Assembly: GCF_000024185.1 (NCBI RefSeq)
Contig: NC_013790.1
Span: forward strand, 953,501-1,017,500
DNA from: Methanobrevibacter ruminantium M1
GTDB lineage: Archaea; Methanobacteriota; Methanobacteria; Methanobacteriales; Methanobacteriaceae
Reading direction: 5' to 3'
DNA: 64,000 bases
A program made the translations under genes and the position numbers. Positions 9,871 through 55,053 of this stretch are shown here, one piece after another. The notes under the pieces are model-generated. The model was not told the origin of the DNA, did no database searches, and saw only the letters and a list, made by a program, of their open reading frames with translations. Position 1 is the first letter of the stretch. Each line of letters starts with the position of its first letter.

Positions 9871-9892
9871 AAAGAGTTAATATTAATACTGT

Positions 9893-9984
9893 AGAACTAA
9901 TCCTATCTAAAATTTTTTTAAACCTATCAATTACATATCACCCCCTTTACATATGTTTTTTTTTTTCATAATAGGATTAGTTCT
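9893..9984 (+). ncRNA. Inverted-repeat element 2 (candidate small RNA)
   Basis: AGAACTAATCCTAT (9893-9906) and ATAGGATTAGTTCT (9971-9984) are a perfect 14-pair inverted repeat. The loop contains the same 18-nt C-rich core as element 1, followed by a run of 13 T. The core ATCACCCCCTTT differs by one base from the 16S rRNA 3' tail ATCACCTCCTTT, so as RNA it could bind purine-rich ribosome binding sites. That role is inferred. Confidence 0.5.
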
Positions 9985-12118: not shown

Positions 12119-12781
12119 TCCATTCACCTTCTCATAATTATAGTTTATATTTCAAATTAAAATAGTTTTTTAATTGTTTTTACTTTTTTTTCAAATGATA
12201 TCTTGAAATCGATAATGATTTGAATGACATTAAATAAACTATTGAAGAAATATCTTCAATTAAAAAATAGTTGAAATCTAAAAAATTAAAAAAAATAGTT
12301 AAAAGTTAAAAAATAGGCTTTTAATAAAGATAAAGTAAAAATTAGAAAATAATAATCATTTAATCTTTAAGATATTCTCTATTTCCTTTCAATTTCTCAC
12401 AAGTCTCCATGGGGATTGATTTTAAATATGAGTATAGTTCTTAATTAATCGAAAGGTTTTTATTATATAAAACTAAATATTAAAATGAGAACTAATTCTA
12501 AAACTTTTACCCTTAAATTAGTTTTTAAACAATATATCTTTTTATTCATTTCATTTAGGATTAGTTCTTTTTCTTTTAAAAATATGTTTTTAATTCTTTT
12601 TTTATTATATCTTTAATAAATCATTTCTTATTCTTATTTTATTCATTAGCCTTTATCGAATTCTTATTTTGATTATTGCTCTTTTTTAATTATTTTCTCA
12701 CTTTATCCACAAGTTTGATTATTAATTGAGAGTTAAAAAAGTTTAAATTAAAAAAAAGCAAAAGATTAATAAATTAACCTT
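12119..12781. other. Gap with inverted-repeat element 3
   Basis: About 660 AT-rich bases without a recognisable gene. The only clear structure is inverted-repeat element 3 (12488-12568) with its TATA box, listed separately. Confidence 0.5.
12488..12568 (+). ncRNA. Inverted-repeat element 3 (candidate small RNA)
   Basis: AGAACTAATTCTAAA (12488-12502) and TTTAGGATTAGTTCT (12554-12568) form a 15-pair stem with one G-U pair when transcribed. TTATATAAA (about 12463-12471) stands about 22-24 bases upstream as a TATA box. Ends match elements 1 and 2, but the C-rich core is absent; the interior has TTTTACCCTTAAA instead. Confidence 0.45.
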
Positions 12782-17687: not shown

Positions 17688-19280
17688 TTATTTTAATACG
17701 AACTTTCTTATGCCGACAATACTTAAGATGATTGCTATTATGTAGCCTATAATTGAAATTACCGGCATGTCAAAGGCTCTTGGTCCGAATGAGACTACAG
17801 ATGAACCTACAATAAGAGCGGATACTAATGCTACTATAGATACCTTGTCTGTTATGTCCACTTCGAATCTGAACTGGAGCTCCTCGTTTTCAATCTTATG
17901 GACTGTTCTTGTAAGAAGCTGAGGCAAGGCACGGAACATATGCTCATATAGAATTATGTTGCTTTTCTTGCTCTTGAGGTATCTCTTAGGATCTAGCCTT
18001 TCTCTGGCGATTCTCTTTGCGATTGGCTTGAGGGATTCGAATATGTCAATCTCTGGGTCAAGGTTGTGTGCGATTGCCTCAACCATTGAGACTCCTCTTG
18101 CCATTGTCACAAGCTCATTTGGAAGGACTACTCCATATTCCTGCATGAGTTTAAGGAGGTCTCCAAGGATGCCGTCGAAACGGTTAAGATCCACTCCGAA
18201 GTATCTTCCGAAGAGATCGTTTAGGTCTCTCTTGAGCGGCTTTGTGTCAATGTCATAGTCTAAGATGTCCATGTACATCAATTGGTTGATTACTCCGTCA
18301 ATGTCCTGGTCCATAATGAGTAAGATTGCCTCTGCGAGGTTGCGTTTGAAGTCCTCGTCAAAGGTTCCCATCATACCAAGGTCAAGGTAGCACAATACAT
18401 TGTCTTCCAGAATCATGATGTTTCCAGGGTGTGGGTCTCCATGGAAGAATCCGTCTATGAGAAGCTGTTGGAGATAGGAGTCAATCACTGTTTTTGCAAG
18501 GAGTTTCTTGTCAAATTCGTCTCCTTCGCTTGCATATACGTCATTCAGTTTTGCTCCTGCAATGAATTCCATTGTAAGGACCTTTGTTGTACAGTATTTA
18601 GGATAGGTTGCTGGAATGTGGACATTTGGATTGTCTACAAAGTTCATCTCAATCCTTTGCATGTTCATGAATTCGTTGTAGTAGTCGATTTCCTTGTGGA
18701 TGCTGCGGTCGAACTCTTCCATCACTCCAGGGAGATTTACCTTCTTAAGCTCGCCGCTTAATCTGTCTGCACGGTTTGCAATGTATTTCATTATCCTTAT
18801 GTCCAGGTCAATCTTGTCTGTGATTCCCTCTTTCTGGATCTTGACTGCAACATGCTCCCCTGTATTTAAGGTAGCTTCGTGAACCTGTCCGATAGATGCG
18901 GTTGCAAGATGCTCATGTGAGAATTCGGCAAAGAGTTCGTCAATGTCTCCTTCAAGCTCCCTTTCAACTATTGCCTTAACCTGCTCATAGCTTATTGCAG
19001 GGTTGTCGTCCTGAAGGTTGGCAAGCTCGTTTGCAATGTCTTCCCCTACCATGTCAGGCCTTGTGCTTAAGAGCTGGCCTAGTTTGATGAAGGTTGTTCC
19101 AAGTTCCTGAAGCATAAGTCTGAACTTGACTGGAACTTCGCTATCCAATAGGAGGCTCTCTTCTTCCTCATCTTTTCCGCGTATCCTGTTTTTTGCGCTT
19201 TCGCCTAAAATCTTATCAAAGCCGTATTTCTTCATCGCAGCTCTGATTTCTCCTAGACGTTCTTTTGTTTCTTTATCCAT
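17688..19280 (-). CDS. ABC1/UbiB family atypical kinase
   Basis: 530 residues with the kinase-like UbiB/ADCK fold. Signatures are the family-specific FIKLGQLLSTRPDM (KxGQ motif), an A-rich ATP-binding loop ATASIGQVHEA, the lysine strand VAVKIQKEG, the catalytic DGFFHGDPHPGNI and the metal-binding YLDLGMMG. The last 60 residues form two membrane helices, the usual C-terminal anchor. In bacteria UbiB supports ubiquinone synthesis; methanogens lack ubiquinone, so here a role in membrane lipid or isoprenoid homeostasis is only a guess. Start at MDKETKE (19280) in place of an upstream TTG. Not in an operon. Confidence 0.92.
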   Translation of the reverse strand: MDKETKERLGEIRAAMKKYGFDKILGESAKNRIRGKDEEEESLLLDSEVPVKFRLMLQELGTTFIKLGQLLSTRPDMVGEDIANELANLQDDNPAISYEQVKAIVERELEGDIDELFAEFSHEHLATASIGQVHEATLNTGEHVAVKIQKEGITDKIDLDIRIMKYIANRADRLSGELKKVNLPGVMEEFDRSIHKEIDYYNEFMNMQRIEMNFVDNPNVHIPATYPKYCTTKVLTMEFIAGAKLNDVYASEGDEFDKKLLAKTVIDSYLQQLLIDGFFHGDPHPGNIMILEDNVLCYLDLGMMGTFDEDFKRNLAEAILLIMDQDIDGVINQLMYMDILDYDIDTKPLKRDLNDLFGRYFGVDLNRFDGILGDLLKLMQEYGVVLPNELVTMARGVSMVEAIAHNLDPEIDIFESLKPIAKRIARERLDPKRYLKSKKSNIILYEHMFRALPQLLTRTVHKIENEELQFRFEVDITDKVSIVALVSALIVGSSVVSFGPRAFDMPVISIIGYIIAIILSIVGIRKFVLK

Positions 19281-19447
19281 AATTATCACATTTGATTAAT
19301 CTCTGCAAATAGAGTTATTGGTATTAAATATCTTATCCTTAGTAGTTTAATTACCCTAATTAATAATATTTTTATTTTAGTTAATACATTTTTCTTAGAG
19401 TAGTGTTTAATTTAAGGGTAATCATTTTCGAGCACTTTTTTATGCAT

Positions 19448-25205: not shown

Positions 25206-26696
25206 ATGAGCAAAATACATTTATCAAAATCCAAATACTGCAAATGCGTCCAATGTGAAAAGATCCTTTGGCTCGGCAGATACAAGCCGGAGGTGGCAGC
25301 AGTTGAGGATAAGGAAACTATTTTTGAAAATGGCAGAAAGGTAGGTGAGCTTGCAAAAGGCCTCTTTGGAGAATATGAAGACATAGAATTCGACATAACT
25401 CTCACTCAAATGATAGAGAAAACCAAAAAACTGCTTGAAGAAAAACCAAATGTCATCACAGAGGCATCATTCAGCTATGAAAACAATTTCTGCAGCGTAG
25501 ACATCCTAAAAAACGATGAAGATGGTGTTGAACTCTATGAAGTTAAAAGCTCCACATCAATAAAAGAGATATACCTTGATGATGTTGCGTTCCAGTACTA
25601 TGTATTGTCAAGCCTTGGCCTAAACGTTAAGAAGGCTGCTCTTGTCTATGTAAACAATGAATACATAAGGGGAGAAGACTTGGACATTAGCCAATATTTT
25701 ATCATAGAGGACATAACTGAGATTGCAATGGCAAAGCAGGATGAGGTAAGGGCCAATATAGAGCATATCAACAACTTTATGGAAGCTCACGATAGGGACA
25801 ATGAGCCAAATATGGAAATAGGAATGCACTGTTGCAATCCTTATTCCTGTGATTTCTGGGCATATTGTACAAAAGAATTGCCAAAGCCAAATGTATTTGA
25901 CATAAGCGGAATGTATAAGTCCCAGAAGTTTGAAAGCTATGCCGAAGGCAAGGTCTCATTTGAGGACTTGAGGAGTGCAAACATCAATCCAAGATATCTT
26001 GAGCAGATAGACTTTGAACTAAACGACAGAGGGCCAAAGGTAGAAAAGCAAGCCATAAAAGACTTTTTAAACTCTCTTAAGTATCCGTTGTACTTTATTG
26101 ATTATGAGTCCTGCAATTATCCAATCCCCGAGCTTGAAGGAACTAAGCCATACCAGCAAATACCTTTCCAATACTCTTTGCATATAATAAAAGAAGAGGG
26201 CGCTCCATTGGAACATAAGGAGTTTCTAGGAGACATCAATGACAAAAACATCATCAGAACATTTGCAGAGCATATGATAAATGATCTCCAAGAAGACGGT
26301 AGTGTAATCGTATATAATAAGTCTTTCGAATCAGCCAGAAATAGGGAGATTGGAGAGATGTATCCAGACTTAAAGGGCCAGATGAATAGAATCAACGATA
26401 ATATGGTTGATTTGATGGTTCCATTCAGGCAAAGGAACTATTATACAAAGGAAATGGAAGGCTCCTATTCAATTAAGTATGTTTTGCCGGCTTTATATCC
26501 AGATGATCCGGAGCTTGATTACGGCAATCTGCCATCAGTTCATAATGGTGGTGAGGCGTCAGATGCATTCTTGAATCTAAAGGGCAAAAGTCCAGAAGAG
26601 CAAGAGCAAACAAGAGAAGATCTGCTTAAATATTGCTGGCTAGACACATATGCCATGGTAAAAATCTGGGAGAAATTTAAAGAAGTTGCAAAATAA
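25206..26696 (+). CDS. Cas4/RecB-like nuclease with DUF2779 domain
   Basis: 496 residues. The N-terminal part is a PD-(D/E)XK nuclease with an iron-sulfur cluster: CKCVQC-type cysteines at the start, a D in FCSVDIL, E-x-K in ELYEVKSST, and a C-terminal Cys set CCNPYSCDFWAYC, as in Cas4 and AddB. The second half starts YPLYFIDYESCNYPIPEL and includes VYNKSFE, DLMVPF and YCWLDTYAMVKIW, the DUF2779 domain with a DEDD/RNase H-like exonuclease pattern. A DNA repair or defence nuclease is likely. AAAGGAGG stands 7 bases before the ATG. There is no CRISPR array nearby. Confidence 0.8.
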   Translation: MSKIHLSKSKYCKCVQCEKILWLGRYKPEVAAVEDKETIFENGRKVGELAKGLFGEYEDIEFDITLTQMIEKTKKLLEEKPNVITEASFSYENNFCSVDILKNDEDGVELYEVKSSTSIKEIYLDDVAFQYYVLSSLGLNVKKAALVYVNNEYIRGEDLDISQYFIIEDITEIAMAKQDEVRANIEHINNFMEAHDRDNEPNMEIGMHCCNPYSCDFWAYCTKELPKPNVFDISGMYKSQKFESYAEGKVSFEDLRSANINPRYLEQIDFELNDRGPKVEKQAIKDFLNSLKYPLYFIDYESCNYPIPELEGTKPYQQIPFQYSLHIIKEEGAPLEHKEFLGDINDKNIIRTFAEHMINDLQEDGSVIVYNKSFESARNREIGEMYPDLKGQMNRINDNMVDLMVPFRQRNYYTKEMEGSYSIKYVLPALYPDDPELDYGNLPSVHNGGEASDAFLNLKGKSPEEQEQTREDLLKYCWLDTYAMVKIWEKFKEVAK

Positions 26697-26957
26697 AAAC
26701 TTTTTTAAATTCCTTTTTTCTTAGTTTTCACTATTTTTCACTTTTTTAAATTCTTTTTTTTTTGCTGTTTTTTCTACTTTTTTTATTTTTTTATTAATTT
26801 TTTTTTATTTTTTTTCAATTTCTAATTTTCCATCCATTAAATTTTTATAAGTTTCAAAAATACAAAACTTTATAAATAAGCAATCCCTTAAAACTATTGA
26901 AAAACACTCTTTTGGAGTTTTTTCAAAAAATCAATTTAAAGTAAAGGAGGAAAAGAT

Positions 26958-27305
26958 ATGAAATTAAGAAATTTGCATTTAGACTATAAAGATGAAAATG
27001 GAGATCTCCGCTATGAGCTAAGAAACGGAGCCCATTCTATGAAAGATGCAGAAGGCTTCTCTCCAGAGGAATTCTATTCATCTTTGGATAATGTAATCAG
27101 AGTATTAAGCCCAAACAATTCATTTAGACCAATTGAAGCCTACCCTAGCAATAATGGACCAAAAGCTCTATTTGGATTCTTATTTTATTTCTTAAAAGGT
27201 ATGGGCTGTAAAAAGGGCTTACAAAAAGAATTCGATTATTTAGAACAGTTCATTGACTATGAAATTGATCTCTTTATGATTGTCAATTTCTTAAGAGAAT
27301 TATAA
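26958..27305 (+). CDS. Conserved-looking small protein of unknown function
   Basis: 115-residue soluble protein, not recognised. The N-terminal 20 residues are charged (LHLDYKDENGDLRYELRNGA). The second half is amphipathic helix (LFGFLFYFLKGMGCKKGLQ and YLEQFIDYEIDLFMIVNFL). Strong AAAGGAGG before the ATG and a hairpin terminator behind it show a well-expressed single gene. Confidence 0.55.
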   Translation: MKLRNLHLDYKDENGDLRYELRNGAHSMKDAEGFSPEEFYSSLDNVIRVLSPNNSFRPIEAYPSNNGPKALFGFLFYFLKGMGCKKGLQKEFDYLEQFIDYEIDLFMIVNFLREL

Positions 27306-27332
27306 ATTCTAGATGAGTGGAATCATTCAATG

Positions 27333-27351
27333 GCCAAACAAATCGTTTGGC
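27333..27351 (+). terminator. Hairpin terminator
   Basis: GCCAAAC-AAATC-GTTTGGC (27333-27351), a seven-pair stem 28 bases after the stop of the gene at 26958, with a T10 run about 37 bases further on. Confidence 0.5.
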
Positions 27352-27646
27352 ATCATTCATTCATAAATCTTTTATAATTCCTAAATTCTTTTTTTTTTTA
27401 ATTAAAAATATAAAATAAATACTAAACACTTCTTTTATTCCAATATTTTTTTTACCTTGTAAAATTGCTTTTTAAAAAAATGTTTGAGTAATTTAATAAA
27501 AATAGACATTTCCGTTGCCAGTCCCAAAACAGGTATTGGGTAAAATTTTATAATTAATAAAAAATATAATTTATTAAGCCTAATTTTAAGGTTATATTTT
27601 TGAAAAGTTTTTTTTTCATTTAGGATTATTGATTTTGGAGGCAATC

Positions 27647-28402
27647 ATGCCATTGGATATAATTGAGGATATATGGAAGTATACAACAAATAATAAAACA
27701 TTTCTTTTAATTATTTTGGTTTTATTCTACTTGTTTTGTATGTTCATGCAAATTTTTGATGAAATGAGGATATCCTATGCACTTTATCTGTCAATGATAC
27801 CTTATATTTTCATTGCAGGCTATGGAATGGCTATAACTAAAGATGTAATTGATAATGGTAAGCGATTGCCTAAAATATTAATCAAAGATGTCATTGTTTT
27901 GGGAATAAAATCAACTGTTGTTTTTATTGTATATCTTTCTGTTCAAGGGATATTTTTTTCCCTAGTATCTTATCTATGCAATTTTCCAATAATTGATGTT
28001 GAAGACCTATTGTTAGATTTTTTTGAAACAGCACCTTTATTATTTCATCATAATCTTGTAAATACGCTTATTTTTATTGTTGTTGATTTTGCAGTATTTT
28101 ATTTCACCATGTTCTTCATGGAAATGGGATTAGCTAAATTAGCAGACACTGGCAGATTTTTGGATGCTTTTAATTTGATTAAGATTAAAAAGATTATTGA
28201 TATAATCGGATGGAGACTATATGCGAAACATTATACAGTAATTATATTTTTATTGTGGGTTTTCTCATTGCTTATAGACGTAGAGACTCCATTTTTTGTT
28301 CTTGATTATATTTTTAAAGTATTTTTAGGTTTATTATTGTTCATTACTCAATATTGGGGCATAGGTGCAGTTTATAGAATATATAAAATTAAAACAAACT
28401 AA
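27647..28402 (+). CDS. DUF4013 family membrane protein
   Basis: 251 residues with about six membrane helices. The N-terminal IIEDIWKYTTNNKTFLLIIL and the late segment on a dispersed glycine and DxGRFxDAFNL motif (LADTGRFLDAFNLIKIKKI) match DUF4013, a family abundant in Methanobrevibacter and relatives. Function unknown. GGAGG 7 bases before the ATG at 27647 fixes the start; the frame is open six codons upstream to a TTG. The 3' end has been copied into a short tandem repeat. Confidence 0.75.
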   Translation: MPLDIIEDIWKYTTNNKTFLLIILVLFYLFCMFMQIFDEMRISYALYLSMIPYIFIAGYGMAITKDVIDNGKRLPKILIKDVIVLGIKSTVVFIVYLSVQGIFFSLVSYLCNFPIIDVEDLLLDFFETAPLLFHHNLVNTLIFIVVDFAVFYFTMFFMEMGLAKLADTGRFLDAFNLIKIKKIIDIIGWRLYAKHYTVIIFLLWVFSLLIDVETPFFVLDYIFKVFLGLLLFITQYWGIGAVYRIYKIKTN

Positions 28403-28466
28403 TTATTGCCGTTTATAGAATATATAAAATTAAAACAAACTAATTATTGCCGTTTATAGAATATTA
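28370..28466 (+). repeat. 41-bp tandem repeat at the end of the DUF4013 gene
   Basis: The last 33 bases of the gene plus 8 bases beyond are repeated at 28411 and partly at 28452 (2.3 copies). This shows a recent slippage or duplication; the coding frame is intact because the stop lies in the first copy. Confidence 0.85.
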
Positions 28467-28580
28467 AAATGAAACAATCTAAGAATTTACATTAGATTGC
28501 TCTCCATACTTAATATATAGAAAAAAATAAAATCAAAATAAAGCAGTTTCTGATTCTGCTGCTTATCATCCTTTCAGTGA

Positions 28581-28709
28581 GCTGAATCAACTAATTCTGA
28601 AAGTGAGGGTGAAATTAGTTTTGAATATGATTATAAGTATGATAAAAAATACACTGTCAATGTAAGCTACAAAAAAGACACAATAAAAACAGCTGTTAAA
28701 GTCAAGTAG
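28581..28709 (+). pseudogene. 3' fragment of a surface-protein-like gene
   Basis: 42 codons open up to a stop codon: after a Ser/Glu-rich start comes FEYDYKYDKKYTVNVSYKK followed by DTIKTAVKVK, resembling the last strand pair of Ig-like adhesin repeats. There is a stop just upstream, no start codon with a binding site, and no upstream domain. It is probably the remnant of an adhesin-like gene. Confidence 0.4.
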
Positions 28710-28847
28710 ATAATTTATTATCTACTTCCTTTTTATTTTTTTCTTATTTTTTTATTTCTTTTTTCTTATTTTCTTCTTATTTCTTATTTTCTTCTTATTT
28801 CTCTTATCTTTCAGATATTTTAGACGTTTCCTAATATTAGGAAACAT

Positions 28848-29141
28848 TTATAATTCAAAATTAAAGCTTACAGTTGTAAATTTCATTCCGCTATCTCTTA
28901 TCTTTTTGGATTTTATCTCAACGTCTCCATATTTATTTAAGAAAGAATTGATCTCTCTTGAAACAGAGCAGTAGTTTCTTCTCTCATAAACCCTATAGCT
29001 TCCCATGAATTTTACTGTTTCCGCTCTATTTAAGACAGTTACCTTGTCCATCCTAAATGATTCATTATATTTTTCTAAGACTGAATTTACTTTCTCTACT
29101 ATATCAGATTTAATCTTTTCTTTTTCTTCGCTGCTAATCAT
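28848..29141 (-). CDS. 97-residue unknown protein, copy 1
   Basis: 97-residue basic, soluble alpha/beta protein (starts MISSEEKEKIKSDIVEKV). It is almost identical to the protein at 31047: three differences, S/I at 4, D/E at 13 and C/G at 58. The N-terminal half is helical; the C-terminal half has strands (GDVEIKSKKIRDSGMKFTTV). Not recognised. The two copies bracket a region with a BRO-domain gene and a tRNA-like relic. Similarity extends only about 25-30 bases beyond the gene on each side. Confidence 0.6.
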   Translation of the reverse strand: MISSEEKEKIKSDIVEKVNSVLEKYNESFRMDKVTVLNRAETVKFMGSYRVYERRNYCSVSREINSFLNKYGDVEIKSKKIRDSGMKFTTVSFNFEL

Positions 29142-29746
29142 AGTGTCCTCTTCTACTTATTCTTATAATTTGATGCTTTTCTATTAGTCGTTAATAAATT
29201 TGAGTTATTTATTTTTATTTACATTTTCATATTTTATAATTATGTCAGAAAATAGCTTATAATTATTTAAATTTGGAGTTGGTTAATTTTTCACTTTAAA
29301 ATCCGATTACTATTTTTCATAAAAGAGTTCTTATTGACAGTTTGCTCTTTTAGTTTCTATAGCCATAGTTTGCTAAGAAAATTTAAGAATTAATATTTTA
29401 AAACCATATTCAATTTTAGCATTTTTGCACAAAAACACATTTGTGTTTTTTCATTTTTTCACAGAATCACATTTTCATAAAATCATTTTATCGCATTTAA
29501 AATACCTTTATTAAGTTTGAAAATAAATATATGTTTGTTTGAATAAATGGAAACTTTCTCACTTTATTCAAAAAAATTAATGATGGATAGATTAGTGCTA
29601 TTGTAGGAGAAGGGTATAGGATTGATAAAAAGCAGAATTATCCTAATAATGACTAGAGAGTTAATTCCTTTACTCATAAGTTTTCATTATTAAATAGATA
29701 CAAAAAGTTAAAAATTGTTATTCTTTTGGATGGGGAGAGTATATAT
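29142..29746. other. Gap before the BRO gene
   Basis: About 600 bases. The only clear structure is the hairpin AAAACACA-TT-TGTGTTTT (29432-29449). A 23-codon TTG-start hydrophobic ORF near 29620 has a purine-rich leader but nothing else in its favour, and I do not call it. Confidence 0.45.
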
Positions 29747-30568
29747 ATGGCAGAAAATGAGATAAAACTATTCAATGATAAACAAATCCGTACTAAATGG
29801 GATGAAGAGATAGGAGATTATTATTTTTCAGTAATAGATGTTATAGCAGTCCTTACAGAAAGTAGCAATCCAAGTAGGTATTGGTCAGAATTAAAAAAGA
29901 AAATTTGTGAAGAACAGGGTCAACCTTTCGAAAATATCGAAAGGTTGAAACTTCCCGCTAAAGATGGTAAAATGAGATTAACCGATGTAGCTAATACTAA
30001 ACAACTATTACGTATCATACAATCAGTTCCGTCACCGAAGGCAGAACCTTTTAAGCAATGGTTGGCTCAAGTGGGAAGTGAAAGACTAGATGAGATTGTT
30101 GATCCTGAATTAGGTATGGAAAGATTAAAAAGTACTTATCGCAAAAAAGGTTACAGTGAAAAATGGATTTCTCAAAGAATGAGAAGCATTGAAATTCGAG
30201 ATGATTTGACTGCCGAATGGGATCGTGTAGGTGTTGAAGAAGGTTTGGAATATGCTATATTGACTAATGAAATCAGTAAGGCTTCATTTGGATTGACTAC
30301 TCGTCAGCATAAAAATTATAAAGGTTTGAAGAAAGAGAGCCTTCGTGATAATATGACCAATGCAGAATTGGTTATCAATATGTTGGGGGAGTTGGCTACT
30401 ACTGAGATTAGCAAGACAGAGAATCCTGGTGGATTTGAAGAGAGCAAGCATGTTGCTAAGCGTGGAGGCAATATTGCGGGCAATGCTCGTAAGGAGTTAG
30501 AAGCTAACACAGGTCGTAAGGTTCTTAGTAAGGCTAATGCGAAGGATAAGAATTTGTTAGAAAACTGA
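29747..30568 (+). CDS. BRO-family N-terminal domain protein
   Basis: 273 residues. The N-terminal 100 residues (IRTKWDEEIGDYYFSVIDVI, then SSNPSRYWSELKKK, LRIIQSVPSPKAEPFKQWLA) are a BRO-N DNA-binding domain, as in phage antirepressors and DinD-like proteins. The second half resembles the conserved bacterial extension found with BRO-N (WDRVGVEEGLEYAILTNEIS, MTNAELVINMLGELATTEIS). GGGGAGAG precedes the ATG at 29747. Codon use and a higher GC content than neighbours, with its phage association, suggest transfer; a role in DNA damage response is possible. Confidence 0.85.
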   Translation: MAENEIKLFNDKQIRTKWDEEIGDYYFSVIDVIAVLTESSNPSRYWSELKKKICEEQGQPFENIERLKLPAKDGKMRLTDVANTKQLLRIIQSVPSPKAEPFKQWLAQVGSERLDEIVDPELGMERLKSTYRKKGYSEKWISQRMRSIEIRDDLTAEWDRVGVEEGLEYAILTNEISKASFGLTTRQHKNYKGLKKESLRDNMTNAELVINMLGELATTEISKTENPGGFEESKHVAKRGGNIAGNARKELEANTGRKVLSKANAKDKNLLEN

Positions 30569-30799
30569 GTGAACAAGTTTTTTGAGGGATTTGTTAAAAT
30601 TTTTTAGAGGAAAATAGATTCTGAATAAATAATTTTAATTCCTTATTTCTATTTTTTAAGATATTTTAACTTTTTTTATCTGGAAGTATGAATTTCTATT
30701 GGTTTTTGATGCCTAATTTTTACTAAATTTTTAAAATTTAATCTATGAATAAACTTTATATTTAGTTAGACATTTTAAAATGAGTTTAAAAAAAGATAA

Positions 30800-30873
30800 G
30801 GTGTCCGACGAAGATTGGACCCTCGACAACAAGGTTAAGAACCAAGCACTCTGCCATAGTGAGCCACGCTCAG
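30800..30873 (-). pseudogene. tRNA-Lys(CUU)-like relic
   Basis: A 74-base GC-richer island. On the minus strand it shows the D-arm (GCTC...GAGT with GGC-type loop), an anticodon arm with loop TTCTTAA (anticodon CTT, lysine) and a T-arm CGAGG-GTCCAAT-CTTCG. The acceptor ends (CTGAGCG and TCGGACA) do not pair and the anticodon stem has two mismatches. It therefore looks like a decayed tRNA or the product of recombination within a tRNA gene, between the two copies of the 97-codon gene. Confidence 0.5.
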
Positions 30874-31046
30874 TTTAAAAAAAACTTTTTAAAAGAATTA
30901 TAATATTTTCCTTTACAAGATTTAACTATTTTGTTTTTTTGCTAATTTGACGAAAATTTCTATATATTATAGGGTTTGAATTGAAAATCTATTCAATCAA
31001 ATATCCCTACTTATAAATAAAATAATTATTCGCAATTAAGAAACAT

Positions 31047-31340
31047 TTATAATTCAAAATTAAAGCTTACAGTTGTAAATTTCATTCCGCTATCTCTTAT
31101 CTTTTTGGATTTTATCTCAACGTCTCCATATTTATTTAAGAAAGAATTGATCTCTCTTGAAACAGAGCCGTAGTTTCTTCTCTCATAAACCCTATAGCTT
31201 CCCATGAATTTTACTGTTTCCGCTCTATTTAAGACAGTTACCTTGTCCATCCTAAAGGATTCGTTATATTTTTCTAAGACTGAATTTACTTTCTCTACTA
31301 TCTCTGATTTAATCTTTTCTTTTTCTTCGATGCTTATCAT
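31047..31340 (-). CDS. 97-residue unknown protein, copy 2
   Basis: Near-identical partner of the gene at 28848, same strand, 2.2 kb away. Both are preceded by AGAGGA(T/C)A and share the 25-30 bases on either side. Function is unknown. Either a recent duplication produced the pair, or they are kept similar by gene conversion; the intervening BRO gene and tRNA relic suggest an insertion-linked event. Confidence 0.6.
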   Translation of the reverse strand: MISIEEKEKIKSEIVEKVNSVLEKYNESFRMDKVTVLNRAETVKFMGSYRVYERRNYGSVSREINSFLNKYGDVEIKSKKIRDSGMKFTTVSFNFEL

Positions 31341-31556
31341 GATATCCTCTTTCGTTTATTCTTATAATTGAAGTGCAAACCACAAAAGAAGTTTCGCCCA
31401 TAAGTTTTAACTTACTTAGTTTAACTATTTATATTTTCATAATTTTAAATTTATCTAAAAGGAGATTAATCATTCATATCTAAGATTAAGTTTTTAACTT
31501 ATTTTAAATATATTAATTATTATGCATTAGATAAGCAATTAGTGAAGGCGTTATTT

Positions 31557-32342
31557 ATGGATAATAGAAATATACTAATCATTATTGGAATAATAGTCCT
31601 AATCGCTGCAGCAGGGATTATTCTAGTGATGTTAACATCAGAAAATTATGAAAGAATGGAGATAGTGCCAAACGGGACAAGCATAGATGTTCCATTAAAC
31701 AAGACCACATATGATGGAGAATTCCAGAGCGCTAGAGTTTGGCATTGGGACAAGGGAATATTAGTCACATACAATAGCCATGAGGATAAAAACATTTTAA
31801 GAGTAAGTGAATTGGGCATTTACACTCTAAATAAAATAATAGAAACTGGAGAAAAGGAAAATATCGATGGATTTACCTCTTATGTAATAAATGCCGATGA
31901 GATATTGGAAATCGAGCTATTCGATGCCATTAAATTACATTATACCGGCAAATTCTATTGCATTCCATTAGCTAATGGAACTACCGGCGACGTTATCATA
32001 ATCTGTTCCAACGACAGGGACGAGGCAGTTCATATGGCCAAATCAATCCAGTACAAGAATGTTTTTCCAGTAAATAGCGATTTCAATAACACAATTGAAA
32101 CTGTGGAGAACCTGAGCGAATATCTGGAGTCAACAGTAAATGACTATGCAAACAGCACTGATTTTGACAATGCCGTTTCAACTGTGGAAAACCTAACTGG
32201 AAATCTAGAGTCATCAGCAAAGGATTATGTAAATGATGCCAATTTAAGTGATGTCAAAACAACAGTGGAAGAGAAAACTGGAATTAATATTGATGATGCT
32301 AAATCCGATTTGGAGCAATACATTGGAAAGTTGACTTCATAA
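31557..32342 (+). CDS. Membrane-anchored extracellular protein
   Basis: 261 residues. A short N-terminal anchor (NILIIIGIIVLIAAAGIILV, residues about 5-24) is followed by an outside domain of about 150 residues with Asn-rich sites, then a C-terminal acidic helical region with two related units (TIETVENLSEYLESTVNDY and AVSTVENLTGNLESSAKDY). The family is not recognised, but such anchored proteins with a PFAM-poor body are common in Methanobacteriales. The ATG at 31557 follows GAAGGCG. Confidence 0.55.
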   Translation: MDNRNILIIIGIIVLIAAAGIILVMLTSENYERMEIVPNGTSIDVPLNKTTYDGEFQSARVWHWDKGILVTYNSHEDKNILRVSELGIYTLNKIIETGEKENIDGFTSYVINADEILEIELFDAIKLHYTGKFYCIPLANGTTGDVIIICSNDRDEAVHMAKSIQYKNVFPVNSDFNNTIETVENLSEYLESTVNDYANSTDFDNAVSTVENLTGNLESSAKDYVNDANLSDVKTTVEEKTGINIDDAKSDLEQYIGKLTS

Positions 32343-32766
32343 TGTTCAAAATGATTGTTATTAGTAGGGGATAGATATGGATATAACTCTTTAAAAATAA
32401 ATTAATTATCAATACATTTATTTTAATATCAAATACACTTCATTAAATCTATACTTGTTAATTTTATTTTAATTTAATCAACCATAAATAAAGAATAATA
32501 AAAGAAAAAATTTTACATCAAAAGCAGGTGTATCTCCTCAGTTAAAATTTTCGTTTAGCCACAGTATAACGAAATTAAATAAACAAAGAGAAATTTATTA
32601 ATTAGATATTAAAAATAAAAAAAGAGAACTATTAATTAGATTTTAAAAATAAAAAAAGAGAACTATTAATTAGATTTTAAAAAAAAGAAATAATTAAATT
32701 TTAAAAATAAAAAAAGAAATTTTATTATTAAACCATTGTTTAATCAAAAATATATTTTTAATATAT
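32343..32766. other. Gap with 33-bp repeats and a hairpin
   Basis: No gene. About three 33-bp AT-rich units recur between 32588 and 32735. At 32550-32573 TTCGTT-TAGCCACAGTAT-AACGAA is a hairpin whose sequence recurs in diverged form at 33159-33182 (TTCGTTAAACCACAGCATAA and so on). Confidence 0.55.
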
Positions 32767-32997
32767 TTAAACCTGTCCCACGGGTGGTATGGTAATTATG
32801 CCAAATGCAATTAAAAGGATATTTATTGCAATCATAGCAATACCAACAATGATTATGTATTTTCCATGTGTTTGGTAGAATGCATCTTCCTTTTTCAAGA
32901 AGTATAATAATGCTCCGACAATTATTCCGACTATTGGGAATAGTATTGCAAGAATGTATCCTATCACTACAAATATTTTGTCCATGAGTTCTGCCAT
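32767..32997 (-). CDS. Small two-span membrane protein
   Basis: 76 residues with two long hydrophobic helices (VVIGYILAILFPIVGIIVGA and IIIVGIAMIAINILLIAFGI) joined by a charged loop (YFLKKEDAFYQTHGK). Likely a small inner-membrane protein with both ends on the same side. GGAGGAAAA before the ATG. Not recognised; a Tic20/DUF4870-like pattern is possible. Confidence 0.6.
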   Translation of the reverse strand: MAELMDKIFVVIGYILAILFPIVGIIVGALLYFLKKEDAFYQTHGKYIIIVGIAMIAINILLIAFGIITIPPVGQV

Positions 32998-33210
32998 TAT
33001 TTTTCCTCCATAATTTTTTAGAATAATTTAATTATTCTATATTTATATTTCTAATAAGCAGTATTTAAATTTTATATAGGGCTGTATTTTTCAATGATTT
33101 TATTCTAATTCTATAAATTTTTTCTTATTTCTTCTAAAATAAGTTTCATTGATTTCGTTTCGTTAAACCACAGCATAATGAACTATAAGTCTATTAAATG
33201 AATAAAAAAC

Positions 33211-33268
33211 TGGTTTAATAAAACCAGTCCCTTTTTTAAAATTGGGTTTAATAAAACCAGTCCCTTTT
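33211..33268 (-). terminator. Double hairpin behind the SseB-like gene
   Basis: ACTGGTTT-AAT-AAAACCAGT at 33211-33230 and a second near-copy of GTTTAATAAAACCAGTCCC at 33245-33263 stand downstream (minus strand) of the gene ending at 33279. On that strand a T6 run follows the second stem. Likely terminator, duplicated. Confidence 0.55.
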
Positions 33269-33278
33269 AAAAACTATC

Positions 33279-34139
33279 TCATTTCATGCCATCATAGAAT
33301 GGCTGATTGCCGCATTTCCACACAGTTGTAAACTCATCCACCTCTTCCACCATCTCAATTTCACATCCTGGAGCCAATAATACATTAAACGGATTCTCCT
33401 CCGTAGGCTCTCCAAAGTAGACTATCCTTTTTCCCTCATCCATCAGTATTATATTCAGGTATGGGGAAACATCCTCTTCAAACTCCTTGATTGTGCTTAC
33501 GCTGAATGGTATGTTTGGAACAAAGACCCCATCGACAGCTACCTCTTTCATAAAGTCCTGAGGGCCTCGGTTAAAGAATGCAGTCTTCTCCTCAAGGGCT
33601 ATTGAATGGTTTTCCAGCACCTCTAGCATACGATTCATGCTTTCAAGGAATCTTTTCTCTTCCTCGCTCATCTCTCTTTTCTTAAACATATTCAAAAAGG
33701 TAAGGATAGGCATGTCGATGCCTGTTTCAGTCATCGGATTGATTGTAACTAGCTGATAAGTGTTCTCTGTCCCTTGAAGGCTATCTACAAGGTCTTCCAC
33801 ATGCATTACAATTACAGAGCTTCTTAGCCCCGCCTCTTCCATTATTCTATCGCTTGTAAAGAGTGGTATGGCCTTCTCTCCTCTATTATTGGTTAGGAAG
33901 TTTATATCAAAGCCGGCAGGCTCTTTGAATTCACGAACTTCCCCAACATCTCCAGATAAGATATCTTCTATCATTGATTGGGAGTAGACAACTGGAAGAT
34001 AAAGCTGTGAGCTTTTGATTTCCTCTCCAAGTTCCTGAACATTTTGAGGACTAGGGTCATCCTTAAAGAGCTGTAGAAGTTCTTCAAGTCTGCTGTTGTC
34101 TACCTTTGTTGTTTCTTCAATGTCTTGACTTTCATTCAT
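33279..34139 (-). CDS. SseB-like two-domain protein, long form B
   Basis: 286 residues, paralogue of the gene at 11270. The N-terminal SseB domain shows EIKSSQLYLPVVYSQSM, KAIPLFTSDRIMEEAG and YQLVTINPMTETGID. The C-terminal domain includes FVPNIPFSVSTIKEF, then VYFGEPTEENPFNVLLAPG and VWKCGNQPFYDG, the same ending as the paralogue. It is acidic and soluble. AAAGGTGATTG precedes the ATG. Function is unknown; four family members in 34 kb indicate lineage-specific expansion. Confidence 0.6.
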   Translation of the reverse strand: MNESQDIEETTKVDNSRLEELLQLFKDDPSPQNVQELGEEIKSSQLYLPVVYSQSMIEDILSGDVGEVREFKEPAGFDINFLTNNRGEKAIPLFTSDRIMEEAGLRSSVIVMHVEDLVDSLQGTENTYQLVTINPMTETGIDMPILTFLNMFKKREMSEEEKRFLESMNRMLEVLENHSIALEEKTAFFNRGPQDFMKEVAVDGVFVPNIPFSVSTIKEFEEDVSPYLNIILMDEGKRIVYFGEPTEENPFNVLLAPGCEIEMVEEVDEFTTVWKCGNQPFYDGMK

Positions 34140-37520: not shown

Positions 37521-37934
37521 TTTTAAATTGAATCCTTTTTTTTAAATCCTTATTTTCTTGTTCAATTACTGATTTTTTTAATCATTATTTCTTTATATAA
37601 TAACTATTTTTTCTCAAATTCCCTATTTCTTTAACCTAATGATAAAAATATTCATTCTAATAAATGTTCAAGGTATTTTGCATATACATTTACTGAAATA
37701 TCAATCTCCTTTGGCCTCTAAAACCCCGGAGGATGAGTAAAACTATTTAAAACTAAACTATCTTATTTCTATTCAAATAATCTCCAATATAATAATCCTC
37801 CCTTTTTATTCGATTTCTTCCATAACTTTAATTTCATTCTTAAAAAATCATAAAAAATACAAAGATTTATATGTGACTATGTCCTTATACTTTTTGAAAA
37901 AGTGAAATATGTAATTTTGATTGGAGGTAAAGTT
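37521..37934. other. AT-rich gap
   Basis: About 400 bases with no recognised gene. A short GC-richer stretch near 37713-37735 (GGCCTCTAAAACCCCGGAGG) has a small inverted repeat CCTC/GAGG. The right edge is the GGAGGT binding site of the next gene. Confidence 0.4.
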
Positions 37935-38252
37935 ATGAATATAAGTGAAAAAATAAAAGAAATGCAAGGGGATTTAGGCAAATATCATGCTTTGGAGAAA
38001 AAAGAAGGAGAATGTGGATTGGAAAACCTGATTATGCTCATACTAAATGACGGAGGCCAATTCGGTCCGGGCAAAATCATTGGTGAAAGCAGTGAATTTT
38101 TAGACTTTATGTTTTATAAGAGACAAGGACCGATCTTCTCTCTCAGCATAAAGAAGGAACACCTTAGCGGATTTTCAATTTTCCATAAGGCAATTGATGA
38201 TGAGAAACAAGCAGCAGCCAATATTGGAATCCCCAAGGCATTGTATCAATAA
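37935..38252 (+). CDS. Unknown small protein, tandem paralogue 1
   Basis: 105 residues starting MNISEKIKEMQGDLGKYHAL. It shares with the next gene the pattern SEKI-x-E-x-QG, II-G-E-S-x-E-(F/Y)-(L/I)-D, a strand FSLSIKKEHLSGF/FTVSIKKERIVGF and FHK. A small beta-rich domain is likely. Not recognised. TTGGAGGT 8 bases before ATG 37935 fixes the start. Co-transcription with the 38319 gene is probable (66-base gap). Confidence 0.6.
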   Translation: MNISEKIKEMQGDLGKYHALEKKEGECGLENLIMLILNDGGQFGPGKIIGESSEFLDFMFYKRQGPIFSLSIKKEHLSGFSIFHKAIDDEKQAAANIGIPKALYQ

Positions 38253-38318
38253 TTGGATAATTTATTTAAAACTAGAGCTAATATTATTATATTTAATTAA
38301 TTGGGTGAGGTAATGATT

Positions 38319-38642
38319 ATGAATTTCAGTGAAAAAATCGAAGAAATCCAAGGAAAAGTCAAGAGTTACAATTCAGAGATTAAAGGCATGAAAAACATTC
38401 CATCAGAAAAGATGATTAGGGTCATGATGGCAGAAGGAGAAATACTTGAGCCATGCATGATCATTGGTGAAAGTGATGAATATATTGATCTTATGGTTGT
38501 GGATTTAGACAAGGGACCAGTTTTTACAGTTTCCATAAAAAAGGAAAGAATAGTTGGATTTGGCACTTTCCATAAGCCTTTAGATGAGTTGGCCTATCCT
38601 GAAGAAGAGCTAAATGCAGTCCCTGCTGCATTATATCTCTAA
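38319..38642 (+). CDS. Unknown small protein, tandem paralogue 2
   Basis: 107 residues starting MNFSEKIEEIQGKVKSY, a clear diverged copy of the preceding gene. I choose ATG 38319 because GAGGT lies 8 bases before it and because it aligns with the start of the paralogue; an ATG two codons earlier touches the binding site. Ends PAALYL like its partner (PKALYQ). Function unknown. Confidence 0.6.
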   Translation: MNFSEKIEEIQGKVKSYNSEIKGMKNIPSEKMIRVMMAEGEILEPCMIIGESDEYIDLMVVDLDKGPVFTVSIKKERIVGFGTFHKPLDELAYPEEELNAVPAALYL

Positions 38643-39771: not shown

Positions 39772-40410
39772 TTAATCATCATACAATGTATCATAATTAA
39801 TAAACTCTTTTATCACATTTTTATTATCAACATCCACTCTTTCACGGTATATGCACTCACCAGAATCAAATTGGGTTTTATATACTTCAAATATTGCATA
39901 GTCTGCCTTTCCATCAAAATAGATTATGTATGGCACTTCCCCAAGATAGCAAGTTCCCATATATTGGCTGTCATTATACAATACTTTCCCATTTTTCGAA
40001 TAGAAAATAACATTTGTGGCATGCTGGCCATAGCTTCTCTCTTTGTATGTAATCTGATATCCATAATCGGTAGTGATTTTTGAGTTATACTGGTTTGAAT
40101 AGATGTATCGGGTAATATTCAAATCATCCACTGTCACTGAACTGGACAATGAATTAGTAATTGCTGGAATGCCAATGTTTGCAAAAACAACTATCCCAAG
40201 AACAATTAGAATTCCTATAAGGCAGTATTTTCCAAGGCTACCGTCTTCTGAGCTTTCTGCACCAGAGGAAGATCCATAGCTGCCTCCTGATGAGTATCTT
40301 GGAACATAGTCTGAAGAGCCATCATAGCCTCTTCCATACATCTTCTCTGAGTCGCTAGCTCCATAGTGATAGTCTGCATTCTGCATAAAGAAGTCATCGT
40401 CACCTATCAT
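39772..40410 (-). CDS. Single-span membrane protein of unknown function
   Basis: 212 residues. A cytoplasmic N-terminus of about 70 residues rich in Gly, Ser, Tyr and Asp (DGSSDYVPRYSSGGSYGSSS) is followed by a membrane helix (CLIGILIVLGIVVFANIGIP) and an outside domain of about 110 residues with strands and two Cys. GGGGGAAAAAT before the ATG. Not recognised. Confidence 0.6.
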   Translation of the reverse strand: MIGDDDFFMQNADYHYGASDSEKMYGRGYDGSSDYVPRYSSGGSYGSSSGAESSEDGSLGKYCLIGILIVLGIVVFANIGIPAITNSLSSSVTVDDLNITRYIYSNQYNSKITTDYGYQITYKERSYGQHATNVIFYSKNGKVLYNDSQYMGTCYLGEVPYIIYFDGKADYAIFEVYKTQFDSGECIYRERVDVDNKNVIKEFINYDTLYDD

Positions 40411-41339: not shown

Positions 41340-41762
41340 GCCATCCCCCTTATTTTATTTTGTTTTATAAATATCGTAAACTCTGATTAAAAATAGATTA
41401 AAATTAAATAAAAACTAATTTAAATGTTTAAGCTATAGGATTTTAGATTAATATTTACCCATCGTTCTATTGTTTAATTCTATTTTCTTATAAGTATTTA
41501 TTTTTTTATATTTTTATTTTCTAAAATAGTTACAAGCCTTTCGTAAAATACTTATTTAATATTTAATGAACTGAATTAAGCGGAAATTAGGTGAATAACT
41601 GAATTAAGCAGAACTTAGGTGAAAACTGGATTAAACAGAACTTAGGTGAAAACTGGATTAAACAGAACTTAGGTGAATAAATTAAACAAAAGTTTATTTA
41701 AAATGTCTTAATCATATCAATCAGTAAAATTCAGCTTTAAATTTCATCAAAAAAAATAGAAA
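41340..41762. repeat. Gap with four 27-28 bp repeats
   Basis: Between about 41571 and 41690 four copies of a 27-28 bp unit recur: CTGAATTAAGC or CTGGATTAAAC, then AGAACTTAGGTGAA. Each includes TTAGGTGAA, identical to the usual ribosome binding site, but no ORF follows. The rest is AT-rich. Confidence 0.65.
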
Positions 41763-41844
41763 TAGAGACAAGGGGATTCGAACCCCTGAAGAACTAATCA
41801 ACAGATCTTGAGTCTGCCGCGTTTGACCGCTTCGCTATGTCTCT
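41763..41844 (-). tRNA. tRNA-Leu(CAA)
   Basis: On the minus strand: acceptor AGAGACA pairs with TGTCTCT; D-arm GCGAAGCGGTCAAACGCG; anticodon arm GCAGA-CTCAAGA-TCTGT with anticodon CAA; long variable arm (TGATTAGTTCTTC), typical of leucine tRNA; T-arm AGGGG-TTCGAAT-CCCCT. Discriminator A at 41763; CCA is not encoded. 82 nt. Confidence 0.93.
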
Positions 41845-41934
41845 AAATAATGCTTTTTAAGAAATCACTTTTTTTAGTATGGTGAATTGGTTAAGTGATT
41901 CCTATTTAATATTGTGTTGTCATAGTATATAAAT

Positions 41935-53799: not shown

Positions 53800-55053
53800 A
53801 GGGGCCTGACGATTTTAGTTTTCAGATAATTGTTGTATGGTCGTTTTTGAGTAAAATCCTTGTGATATAATCAGTGCTCCCAAAAATACATTTAGATAAA
53901 CGGTTTTTTCTACTGATTTTAGAGTATATTTGTGGATTTCTCTCATATTCAAGCCTTGTTTTAATAATTTGAAAAAATCTTCTATTTTGCCCCTTATTGG
54001 TTTAAATTTTTCCCATGAATCTATTTTTTTCATTAATTCCATTTTTAAACTGTTGTATAATCTTTTTTCTTTCATTATTCTCTTTGTTTTGTTAAATACG
54101 GCTAGTGGATAAGTTAAAATGTCATCCAATCGGGTTCTGCTGAATTTTTCTTTTGGAAAAATGAAAGGAATGATTTTGTATTTGCTGATTCCGATTTGGT
54201 AGTTTTTATACCTGTAATATCCTTTATCAAAGATTAATGTGTCTCCTTTTCTGATTATTCGTCTTTTTTGAAGGTTTTCTAAAATCTCTTCAAAAAGTCC
54301 TGCATCATTTGGAGCTCCAGAATGGATTAAAATGCAAACAGGATTCATAGAATCGTAATCCATCACAACAGTCGCTTTAAATCCAATATAATAACCTTTA
54401 GAGGAAGAATAACTCCATTTGAGATTAATTTTTTCCAGATGTTCTTTAGTCTTTTTATTTCTGTGGAAATTAATATCTAAGTCCACTGGGGTCGCATCAA
54501 CAATAAAAGTCTTTTTTCCTCTCCTTTTAACCATATTCCTTGAGTTTAAGATTCTGTTTAATGATTTTATAAGTTTTTCAGAGTTTATTTCTGAAAAGAT
54601 TTTATAAACTTGATCTGCAGTCAGAACTTCAGAAATATTAAGGAATTTGCAGAGTCTTCTATTGGATTTGAGTTCATTTAGGATGAATGGAATGTCAATT
54701 TCAAAGAACATGCTTATAAAAATGATTTTAAAAGCAAATATTGTTCTGTTTAGGTTTTTAAATCCATAGGATACCAATATTCTTTTGGATTCTCTTGAAT
54801 CCATAATTTTAAATATTTCTTTCAACAAAATATAATTTGGGTCTTTATTATCTAAATTTAATCTATGCTTCATTATTATCGCCAATAATATATTTGTAAA
54901 GCATATTATTTAAATTTAACGATATTAAAGACCTATTTTTTTATATAACTAATAATACATTTGTATTTTTAGAAATTAAACTTATTTTTTAGGAGAATGA
55001 ATTAAAATAAGGAAAATTCGAGGGAATTTTCACATCAAAAAATTCAGGCCCCT
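53800..55053. mobile_element. Complete insertion sequence
   Basis: 1,254 bases ended by the 10-bp inverted repeat AGGGGCCTGA (53800-53809) and TCAGGCCCCT (55044-55053), with one transposase gene on the minus strand. A further inverted repeat GAAAATTC...GGAATTTTC lies inside the right end. I do not see a clear target duplication, which may be lost or short. The element stands 160 bases upstream of the gene at 52231, and may separate it from its native promoter region. Confidence 0.8.
53815..54873 (-). CDS. DDE transposase (IS4/IS5-like)
   Basis: 352 residues. The RNase-H-type catalytic triad is visible: D in TFIVDATPVDLD, D in TLIFDKGYYRYKNYQIG, and E in RGKIEDFFKLLKQGLNM, with the helical N-terminus usual for DDE_Tnp_1. 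The frame is intact. Start at MKHRLNL (54873). The gene fills the element from 15 bases inside the left end. Active or recently active. Confidence 0.88.
   Translation of the reverse strand: MKHRLNLDNKDPNYILLKEIFKIMDSRESKRILVSYGFKNLNRTIFAFKIIFISMFFEIDIPFILNELKSNRRLCKFLNISEVLTADQVYKIFSEINSEKLIKSLNRILNSRNMVKRRGKKTFIVDATPVDLDINFHRNKKTKEHLEKINLKWSYSSSKGYYIGFKATVVMDYDSMNPVCILIHSGAPNDAGLFEEILENLQKRRIIRKGDTLIFDKGYYRYKNYQIGISKYKIIPFIFPKEKFSRTRLDDILTYPLAVFNKTKRIMKEKRLYNSLKMELMKKIDSWEKFKPIRGKIEDFFKLLKQGLNMREIHKYTLKSVEKTVYLNVFLGALIISQGFYSKTTIQQLSEN

What the first reader, a model, noticed from the sequence alone, without database searches (positions are those of the whole stretch)
28848..31340. BRO gene and tRNA-Lys-like relic between two near-identical genes
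Two 97-codon genes differ at three residues and bracket 1.9 kb with a phage-type BRO gene and a decayed tRNA. tRNA genes are common integration sites. The layout may record insertion and partial loss of a mobile element, or the pair may be kept alike by gene conversion.
Basis: partly seen in the sequence, partly recalled or inferred. Interest (0 to 1): 0.5.

Follow-up and report, generated by a model that had tools for sequence, protein, structure and literature searches.

The report
Repair-linked gene pair, dead tRNA between
In a rumen methane-making archaeon, two near-identical copies of a small protein gene, whose relatives sit inside DNA-repair operons, bracket a solitary Bro-type gene and a decayed spare tRNA-Lys gene; the layout looks like ordinary gene turnover, not the scar of an integrated virus.

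Summary
In Methanobrevibacter ruminantium M1, two 97-codon genes (287 of 294 nt identical) bracket 1,905 bp with a Bro-N gene and a tRNA-Lys(CUU) relic. The relic is full length, 58 of 74 bases like the intact tRNA-Lys(CUU) 1.17 Mb away, far below the tRNA cut-off. No integrase lies in the window; one IS transposase lies 22 kb off, with a relative in the tRNA-Lys region. The Bro gene is a solitary chromosomal gene (PADLOC candidate PDC-S13) matched in 63 of 138 family genomes, often as fragments. The relic looks like a redundant tRNA-CNN copy, a class known to be lost in Methanobacteriales. Related tRNA-Lys neighbourhoods hold several genes now in this window, so the segment was probably shuffled from there. 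The 97-aa family has no Pfam, NCBIfam or PHROG model and was found only in Methanobacteriaceae. Its Cys-Cys-bearing paralogue sits beside mrfA, mrfB, uvrB or uvrA in 19 of 20 loci fetched, suggesting an excision-repair accessory protein. The window copies belong to a stand-alone branch without that cysteine pair. Differences crowded at the 5' end favour gene conversion, moderately. The juxtaposition is ordinary; the repair-linked protein family is the interesting part.

The parts
28848..29141 (-). 97-codon gene, copy A (stand-alone branch of a Methanobacteriaceae family; no cysteine pair)
31047..31340 (-). 97-codon gene, copy B, 287 of 294 nt identical to copy A
28836..29135 (-). 300-nt direct repeat at 98% with 31035-31334; 11 of the 12 nt behind the stop codon match, then nothing clear
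29142..29173 (-). upstream stretch of copy A, 23 of 32 nt like that of copy B (31341-31372); promoter/ribosome-site like
31341..31372 (-). upstream stretch of copy B, counterpart of 29142-29173
28826..28845 (.). 20-bp perfect palindrome just behind copy A; its 18-bp core occurs once exactly in the genome; terminator-like
29726..30568 (+). solitary Bro-N protein, 273-280 aa (ATG at 29747 the likelier start); PADLOC candidate PDC-S13, phrog_15286
30800..30873 (-). full-length tRNA-Lys(CUU) relic: 58 of 74 identical to the intact gene; acceptor stem 4 of 7 pairs
37902..38252 (+). gene whose relative lies beside tRNA-Lys in G019 (67%)
38301..38642 (+). gene whose relative lies beside tRNA-Lys in G019 (71%)
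39772..40410 (-). 212-aa gene; relatives lie in the tRNA-Lys region in 7 of the 10 other genus genomes that have it
41762..41845 (-). intact tRNA-Leu(CAA); in G027 a tRNA-Leu(CAA) lies between the 39772-type gene and the 97-aa gene
17688..19289 (-). ABC1-kinase gene; 81% relative lies beside tRNA-Lys in G021 (39-40% relatives in that region in G022, G023)
53815..54885 (-). DDE transposase (IS element); an 83% relative lies at about 2162445 in the M1 tRNA-Lys region

Best explanation
This is a gene-turnover segment, seen so far only in M. ruminantium M1, not an element scar. (1) The pair are two stand-alone copies of a small protein from a Methanobacteriaceae family. The family's other branch carries an invariant Cys-Cys pair and is built into excision-repair operons (mrfA-x-mrfB, prs-x-uvrB-uvrA, x-uvrB). 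The inferred role is an accessory protein of damage excision with a ferredoxin-like plait fold; the window copies are a Cys-less branch. (2) In the M1 lineage the gene was duplicated, and the 3' two-thirds were probably homogenised by gene conversion while the 5' end and upstream regions drifted. (3) A solitary Bro-N gene (candidate defence gene PDC-S13) sits between them by chance. (4) The tRNA-Lys(CUU) relic is a redundant copy that died while the one in the ancestral place at 2.15 Mb stayed intact. It probably arrived with neighbours shuffled out of the variable tRNA-Lys region, perhaps through recombination between IS copies present in both regions. Shown: homologies, identities, positions in relatives, operon contexts. 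Inferred: repair role, conversion, origin of the segment, part of the IS.
For: Family: 39 of 138 family genomes carry the stand-alone branch at 71% identity or more over at least 78 aa (my count of the rows). Of 20 loci of the other branch fetched, 19 have mrfA, mrfB, uvrB or uvrA beside it. Identities checked: MrfA (MZB), MrfB (RNase_H_2), HerA, Mre11-type and Rad50 by Pfam in M1; UvrB, UvrA and Prs of G035 by PDB relatives. Cys-Cys is present in 23 of 23 sequences of that branch and in none of 35 of the stand-alone branch. A profile search matched 108 of 151 phylum genomes, all 108 in the window's own family. Pair: the M1 copies are each other's nearest (97.6%, next 81-82%), whereas the adjacent pair in G069 is not; 6 of 7 differences lie in the first 84 nt. 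Relic. The intact tRNA-Lys of M1 is flanked on both sides by genes collinear with G032 and G023. Relatives of window genes lie in that region. A transposase of the window has an 83% relative in that region. Loss of tRNA-CNN in Methanobacteriales is published (PMC6000648, passages read). Bro gene: matched in 63 of 138 genomes, many fragments, no fixed neighbours.
Against: The mosaic pattern rests on seven differences; a permutation test that allows any breakpoint gives 53 of 2,000. A recent plain duplication is not excluded. Operon neighbourhood is guilt by association: no experiment, the 20 loci are not independent, and one (L276) has none of these neighbours. Foldseek's only match at E 0.001 or better is a phage neck protein (9m6x_M, E 8e-4, TM 0.51, rmsd 6.2, 10% identity), so the fold does not point to repair. 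The shuffling from the tRNA-Lys region is inferred from a few genes: the 267-aa neighbour of tRNA-Lys in relatives was not found in M1, orientations are mixed, and in G022 and G027 that region holds the 39772-type gene while tRNA-Lys is on another contig. Most relatives are fragmented drafts, and no second M. ruminantium strain was available.
Confidence: 0.68

Rival explanations
1. Scar of a mobile element that integrated at tRNA-Lys and was partly lost, leaving Bro cargo and a tRNA fragment.
For: Bro-N proteins occur in phages; 10 viral contigs carry relatives at 48-55% and 4 phage records do so at 48-58%. tRNA genes are common att sites (established knowledge). A DDE transposase lies 22 kb away. 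The best Foldseek rows for the 97-aa protein are phage neck proteins.
Against: Relic is full length; no integrase among the 53 window ORFs of 90 aa or more; no att-like repeat beyond AT-rich ones. No relative of the 97-aa gene in viral contigs by a single-sequence scan, which sees close relatives only. Bro neighbours vary among chromosomes. The tRNA-Lys in the ancestral place is intact.
Confidence: 0.07
2. Recent tandem duplication of the 97-aa gene, nothing more: 2.4% divergence is simply age, and the upstream regions differ because the duplicated unit ended there.
For: Copies are each other's nearest among 35 sequences; similarity stops about 12 nt behind the stop codon.
Against: All four synonymous differences lie in the first 28 codons, none in the remaining 69. 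23 of 32 upstream nt match, with a weak resemblance further up (5 of 300 shuffles reach it), as if old shared flanks had decayed.
Confidence: 0.35
3. The interval is a functional damage-response/defence cassette: excision-repair-type proteins beside a Bro/DinD-like gene.
For: Family context in repair operons; the Bro gene is PADLOC candidate PDC-S13 and weakly resembles DinD (20.7 bits).
Against: In 18 of 18 relatives with both genes they are on different contigs. The Bro gene runs opposite to the pair with spacers of about 0.5 kb. DinD's curated cut-off of 242 bits is not met.
Confidence: 0.1
4. The tRNA relic is a working RNA, either a divergent tRNA or a regulatory tRNA mimic.
For: D arm 4 of 4 pairs; anticodon stem the same as in the intact gene.
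Against: Acceptor stem 4 of 7 pairs, T loop and last base changed; 15.3 bits against 29. The alignments that I made to 12 other tRNA-Lys sequences show no copy with the same set of changes.
Confidence: 0.03

Closest known systems
mrfAB (yprAB) mitomycin C repair operon, Bacillus subtilis (PMC11194089 and preprint PMC12458937, passages read)
   Same: The paralogue of the window genes lies between MrfA-like (MZB domain) and MrfB-like (RNase_H_2) genes in M1 and relatives.
   Different: The passages read describe a two-gene pair and name no such small protein. The window copies stand outside any operon and lack the Cys pair.
Bro-N / DinD-like proteins; PADLOC candidate PDC-S13
   Same: Bro-N domain above Pfam's cut-off; PDC-S13 at 425 bits over residues 1-270.
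   Different: Below the DinD equivalog cut-off. Defence function is a database candidate only; a library search for the name found no paper.
Loss of tRNA-CNN genes in Methanobacteriales (PMC6000648, passages read)
   Same: The dead gene is tRNA-Lys(CUU), a CNN type; an intact copy and a tRNA-Lys with anticodon TTT remain.
   Different: Here one extra copy is decaying while the functional one persists.
tRNA-integrated archaeal elements (established knowledge; no paper read)
   Same: tRNA sequence beside a gene with phage relatives.
   Different: Full-length relic, no recombinase found, no att repeat.

Membership tests
tRNA-Lys(CUU) (RF00005) | Score at or above Rfam's gathering score | tested here: not met
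   15.3 bits against 29; hence a relic, not a tRNA gene
tRNA-Lys(CUU) (RF00005) | Descent from tRNA-Lys(CUU) rather than the other tRNA-Lys | tested here: met
   7 of 7 diagnostic positions; 58 of 74 identity
Bro-N domain family (PF02498) | Score above Pfam's cut-off | tested here: met
   45.2 against 25.6 bits
DinD (NF008573) | Score above NCBIfam's equivalog cut-off | tested here: not met
   20.7 against 242 bits
PDC-S13 defence candidate | Full-length profile match | tested here: met
   425 bits, residues 1-270
PDC-S13 defence candidate | Protects against phage or virus | not testable with these tools
   no experiment
tRNA-targeted integrative element | Integrase or site-specific recombinase gene nearby | tested here: not met
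   none among all 53 window ORFs of 90 aa or more; one DDE transposase 22 kb away
tRNA-targeted integrative element | att repeat made of the tRNA 3' end | tested here: not met
   relic is full length; only AT-rich repeats of 16 nt or more besides the gene pair in 26500-34000
Repair-operon small-protein family (defined here) | Sequence homology to the Cys-pair branch | tested here: met
   single-sequence search reaches the M1 paralogue at E 8e-11 and others to 9e-18
Repair-operon small-protein family (defined here) | Invariant Cys-Cys | tested here: not met
   absent in both window copies and in all 35 stand-alone sequences
Repair-operon small-protein family (defined here) | Location beside mrfA/mrfB/uvrB/uvrA | tested here: not met
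   no such gene among the neighbours of the window copies by Pfam; neighbours of the stand-alone relatives vary from genome to genome (neighbours grouped but not named)

The most novel reading that the evidence does not exclude
The 97-aa family is an unrecognised excision-repair accessory protein of Methanobacteriaceae that serves both the MrfAB and the UvrAB pathway through a Cys-Cys-bearing plait domain. Ruminant-associated Methanobrevibacter evolved a very conserved, Cys-less, free-standing branch of it (perhaps a decoy or regulator of the repair protein), which M1 doubled and keeps uniform by gene conversion.
Probability: 0.35. Interest if true: 0.62.

Novelty: new variant of a known kind. 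Interest (0 to 1): 0.4.

Why it matters
It removes a false lead (no element scar) and replaces it with testable ones. One is an undescribed small protein that keeps company with two different excision-repair systems in methanogens. Another is an odd Cys-less branch of it, conserved at 71-85% identity across 39 Methanobacteriaceae genomes, many from ruminants. The third is a live example of tRNA-CNN copy decay in an order known for losing these tRNAs.

Tried and rejected
Rejected: integrated-element scar (no integrase, no att, full-length relic). Rejected: viral origin of the 97-aa gene (26 pattern matches, none a relative, a single-sequence scan). Rejected: an early idea that the relic sits at the ancestral tRNA-Lys site and the intact gene had moved; flank mapping showed the reverse.

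Led nowhere: PDB sequence search. Foldseek and VIA-align gave common plait arrangements (PilO Z 8.9, permuted S6 Z 8.8) and phage neck or tail-terminator proteins (Foldseek E 8e-4 to 1e-3, VIA Z up to 7.8), no function that I could use. NCBIfam and PHROG searches of the 97-aa protein gave nothing of weight, nor did Pfam and NCBIfam for the Cys-pair branch. Library searches: PDC-S13, 0 papers; UvrB plus Methanobrevibacter plus excision repair, 0 papers. The palindrome behind copy A gave no lead (one exact place, one more at 2 mismatches). Upstream similarity beyond 45 nt is weak.

Corrections made on re-reading: my notebook says 42 genomes, but one search lists 42 rows from 39 genomes plus one broken remnant (G062). 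An earlier statement that no transposase was found rested on half of the ORFs; the rest were scanned and one DDE transposase appeared. UvrB, UvrA and Prs of G035 had first been named by eye; searches confirm them. None of these changed my odds.

Rows dropped: L022 (97-aa gene cut by contig end) was left out. L028 and L070 are one locus counted twice among the 35. L185, L195, L197, L198 and L200 were left out of alignment A2. L265, L267, L275 and L276 were left out of A3.

Full report
Where it is. The window is 953501-1017500 of a 2,937,203-bp single-contig genome, the exact size published for Methanobrevibacter ruminantium M1 (PMC2812497, passages read). The 58 tRNA matches above cut-off equal the published tRNA count, so the relic is not among them.

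The observation. Two 97-codon genes on the minus strand, 28848-29141 and 31047-31340, share 287 of 294 nt. Between them are 1,905 bp with a Bro-N gene on the plus strand and a tRNA-like sequence on the minus strand. All of it is really there.

The tRNA relic. It covers all 74 positions of tRNA-Lys(CUU) without a gap, 58 identical. It follows CUU, not the TTT-anticodon tRNA-Lys, at all seven positions that separate the two intact M1 genes compared. The acceptor stem keeps 4 of 7 pairs and the score is 15.3 bits against 29. The intact tRNA-Lys(CUU) lies at 2151672-2151745, between genes that are collinear on both sides with G032 contig 9 and G023 contig 42; that is taken as the ancestral place. 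Among 13 genomes of the genus in which I placed a tRNA-Lys(CUU), 7 (M1 included) share that place by at least two neighbour genes, G029 and G034 share another, and four stand alone (draft contigs, so partly a limit of the data). G092 shows a parallel case: a decayed tRNA-Lys behind tRNA-Gln(CUG) and an intact one on another contig. Loss of tRNA-CNN genes in Methanobacteriales is published (PMC6000648). So a spare copy that died is the simplest reading.

Origin of the segment. In relatives the variable region around tRNA-Lys contains genes that M1 has in this window. The 39772-type gene is in 11 of 19 genus genomes, once in M1. In 5 of the 10 others (G018, G021, G023, G031, G032) it lies on the tRNA-Lys contig within about 6 kb; in two more (G022, G027) it lies between the same anchor genes while tRNA-Lys is elsewhere; G020, G034 and G028 are unresolved. 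The 37902 and 38301 types lie beside tRNA-Lys in G019 and the 17688 type in G021; the 97-aa gene lies in that region in G018 and G027. Among the two M1 stretches compared (about 104 kb around the window, 60 kb around tRNA-Lys), these genes match best in the window stretch. This suggests that pieces of the region, a tRNA-Lys copy included, were moved to 0.98 Mb in M1. A DDE transposase of the window (53815-54885) has an 83% relative at about 2162445, 11 kb from the intact tRNA-Lys, and a 92% relative in the G027 region, so recombination between IS copies is a possible means (inferred). Against it: orientations are mixed, and the 267-aa gene that adjoins tRNA-Lys in relatives was not found in M1.

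The pair. The M1 copies are nearest to each other; the next best is 81-82%. Six of seven differences, including all four synonymous ones, fall in the first 84 nt (Fisher p 0.0026; any-breakpoint permutation 53 of 2,000). 11 of 12 nt behind the stop codon match, then nothing clear; upstream, 23 of 32 nt match and then little. This fits conversion of the 3' two-thirds in an older pair, but a young duplication is not excluded. G069 also has two copies 1.2 kb apart; they are not each other's nearest.

What the 97-aa protein is. No Pfam, NCBIfam, PHROG, PADLOC or PDB sequence match of weight. The stand-alone branch (71% or more) occurs in 39 of 138 family genomes. The named scan found 32 loci, 31 from Methanobrevibacter records, 13 of which name a ruminant (goat, deer, buffalo), and one labelled Clostridia whose 27% G+C stretch is probably misbinned. 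A distant branch is more widespread: 102 of 138 genomes have one branch or the other by single-sequence search, and 108 of 151 phylum genomes by profile, all in the same family. In M1 that paralogue lies between a MrfA helicase and a MrfB nuclease, beside HerA, an Mre11-type nuclease and Rad50. I fetched 20 further loci from nine genera: 19 have mrfA, mrfB, uvrB or uvrA beside it, in at least three arrangements (mrfA-x-mrfB; prs-x-uvrB-uvrA; x-uvrB, with L271 settled); L276 has none. With M1, G032 and G035 that is 22 of 23. The G035 reference genes are UvrB, UvrA and Prs by PDB relatives. A Cys-Cys pair is present in 23 of 23 of these and absent in all 35 stand-alone sequences. The predicted structure of the window protein (29 sequences, mean pLDDT 94) has the order helix-strand-strand-helix-strand-strand. 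Foldseek's first rows are phage neck proteins (E 8e-4, TM 0.51, 10% identity); by VIA-align the best are PilO (Z 8.9) and permuted ribosomal protein S6 (Z 8.8). These are common plait arrangements and name no function. A role in excision of DNA damage is therefore inferred from context alone. MrfA and MrfB act in mitomycin C repair in B. subtilis, by one paper independently of UvrABC (PMC11194089, passages read); a preprint places them in nucleotide excision repair (PMC12458937, passages read).

The Bro gene. Bro-N passes Pfam's cut-off; DinD does not pass NCBIfam's. It matches PADLOC candidate PDC-S13 over residues 1-270. 63 of 138 family genomes have a match, many of them fragments or with stops; M1 itself has a second match in two pieces at 120865-121538. 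Neighbours differ from genome to genome. Viral relatives are more distant, 48-55%, than the nearest chromosomal ones, up to 81%.

Verdict. The bracket is most likely a chance stack of three separate turnover stories. The part worth following is the repair-linked protein family.

Noticed in passing
L223-L252 (30 tRNA-Lys(CUU) genes); M1 2151672-2151745: All 30 intact tRNA-Lys(CUU) genes examined have two adjacent U-U mismatches in the anticodon stem (CTTGG/CCTTG), while the TTT-anticodon tRNA-Lys of M1 has a perfect stem; the relic keeps the mismatches.
   Followed up: partly
L130 about 9892-9973 (G092 contig 7): Independent decayed tRNA-Lys(CUU) behind an intact tRNA-Gln(CUG), with an intact tRNA-Lys on another contig.
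   Followed up: partly
window 28520-28709: Frameshifted remains of a small exported-protein gene: a signal-peptide-like stretch, then an open reading end in another frame.
   Followed up: no
window 28366-28469: Two to three 41-bp tandem units directly behind the DUF4013 gene.
   Followed up: no
window 28826-28845: 20-bp perfect palindrome directly behind copy A; some relatives show a GTTTC...GAAAC arrangement there.
   Followed up: partly
L200: Contig labelled Clostridia carries the 97-aa gene at its very end; 27% G+C, probably a misbinned Methanobrevibacter contig.
   Followed up: partly
window 7841-8347, 8391-8795, 11270-12127, 33279-34139: Four SseB-domain genes in one window.
   Followed up: no
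window 9316-9795, 13885-15330, 21168-22181: A Panacea-domain (SocA antitoxin-like) gene, an AAA_14/DUF4143 ATPase (PADLOC candidate PDC-S01) and an ADP-ribosylglycohydrolase.
   Followed up: no
window 53815-54885 and M1 about 2162445-2163513: DDE transposase and an 83% relative of it in the M1 tRNA-Lys region, on opposite strands.
   Followed up: partly
L069 8704-10520 (G069 contig 44): A second genome with two adjacent 97-aa genes bracketing another gene; the two are not each other's nearest relatives.
   Followed up: partly
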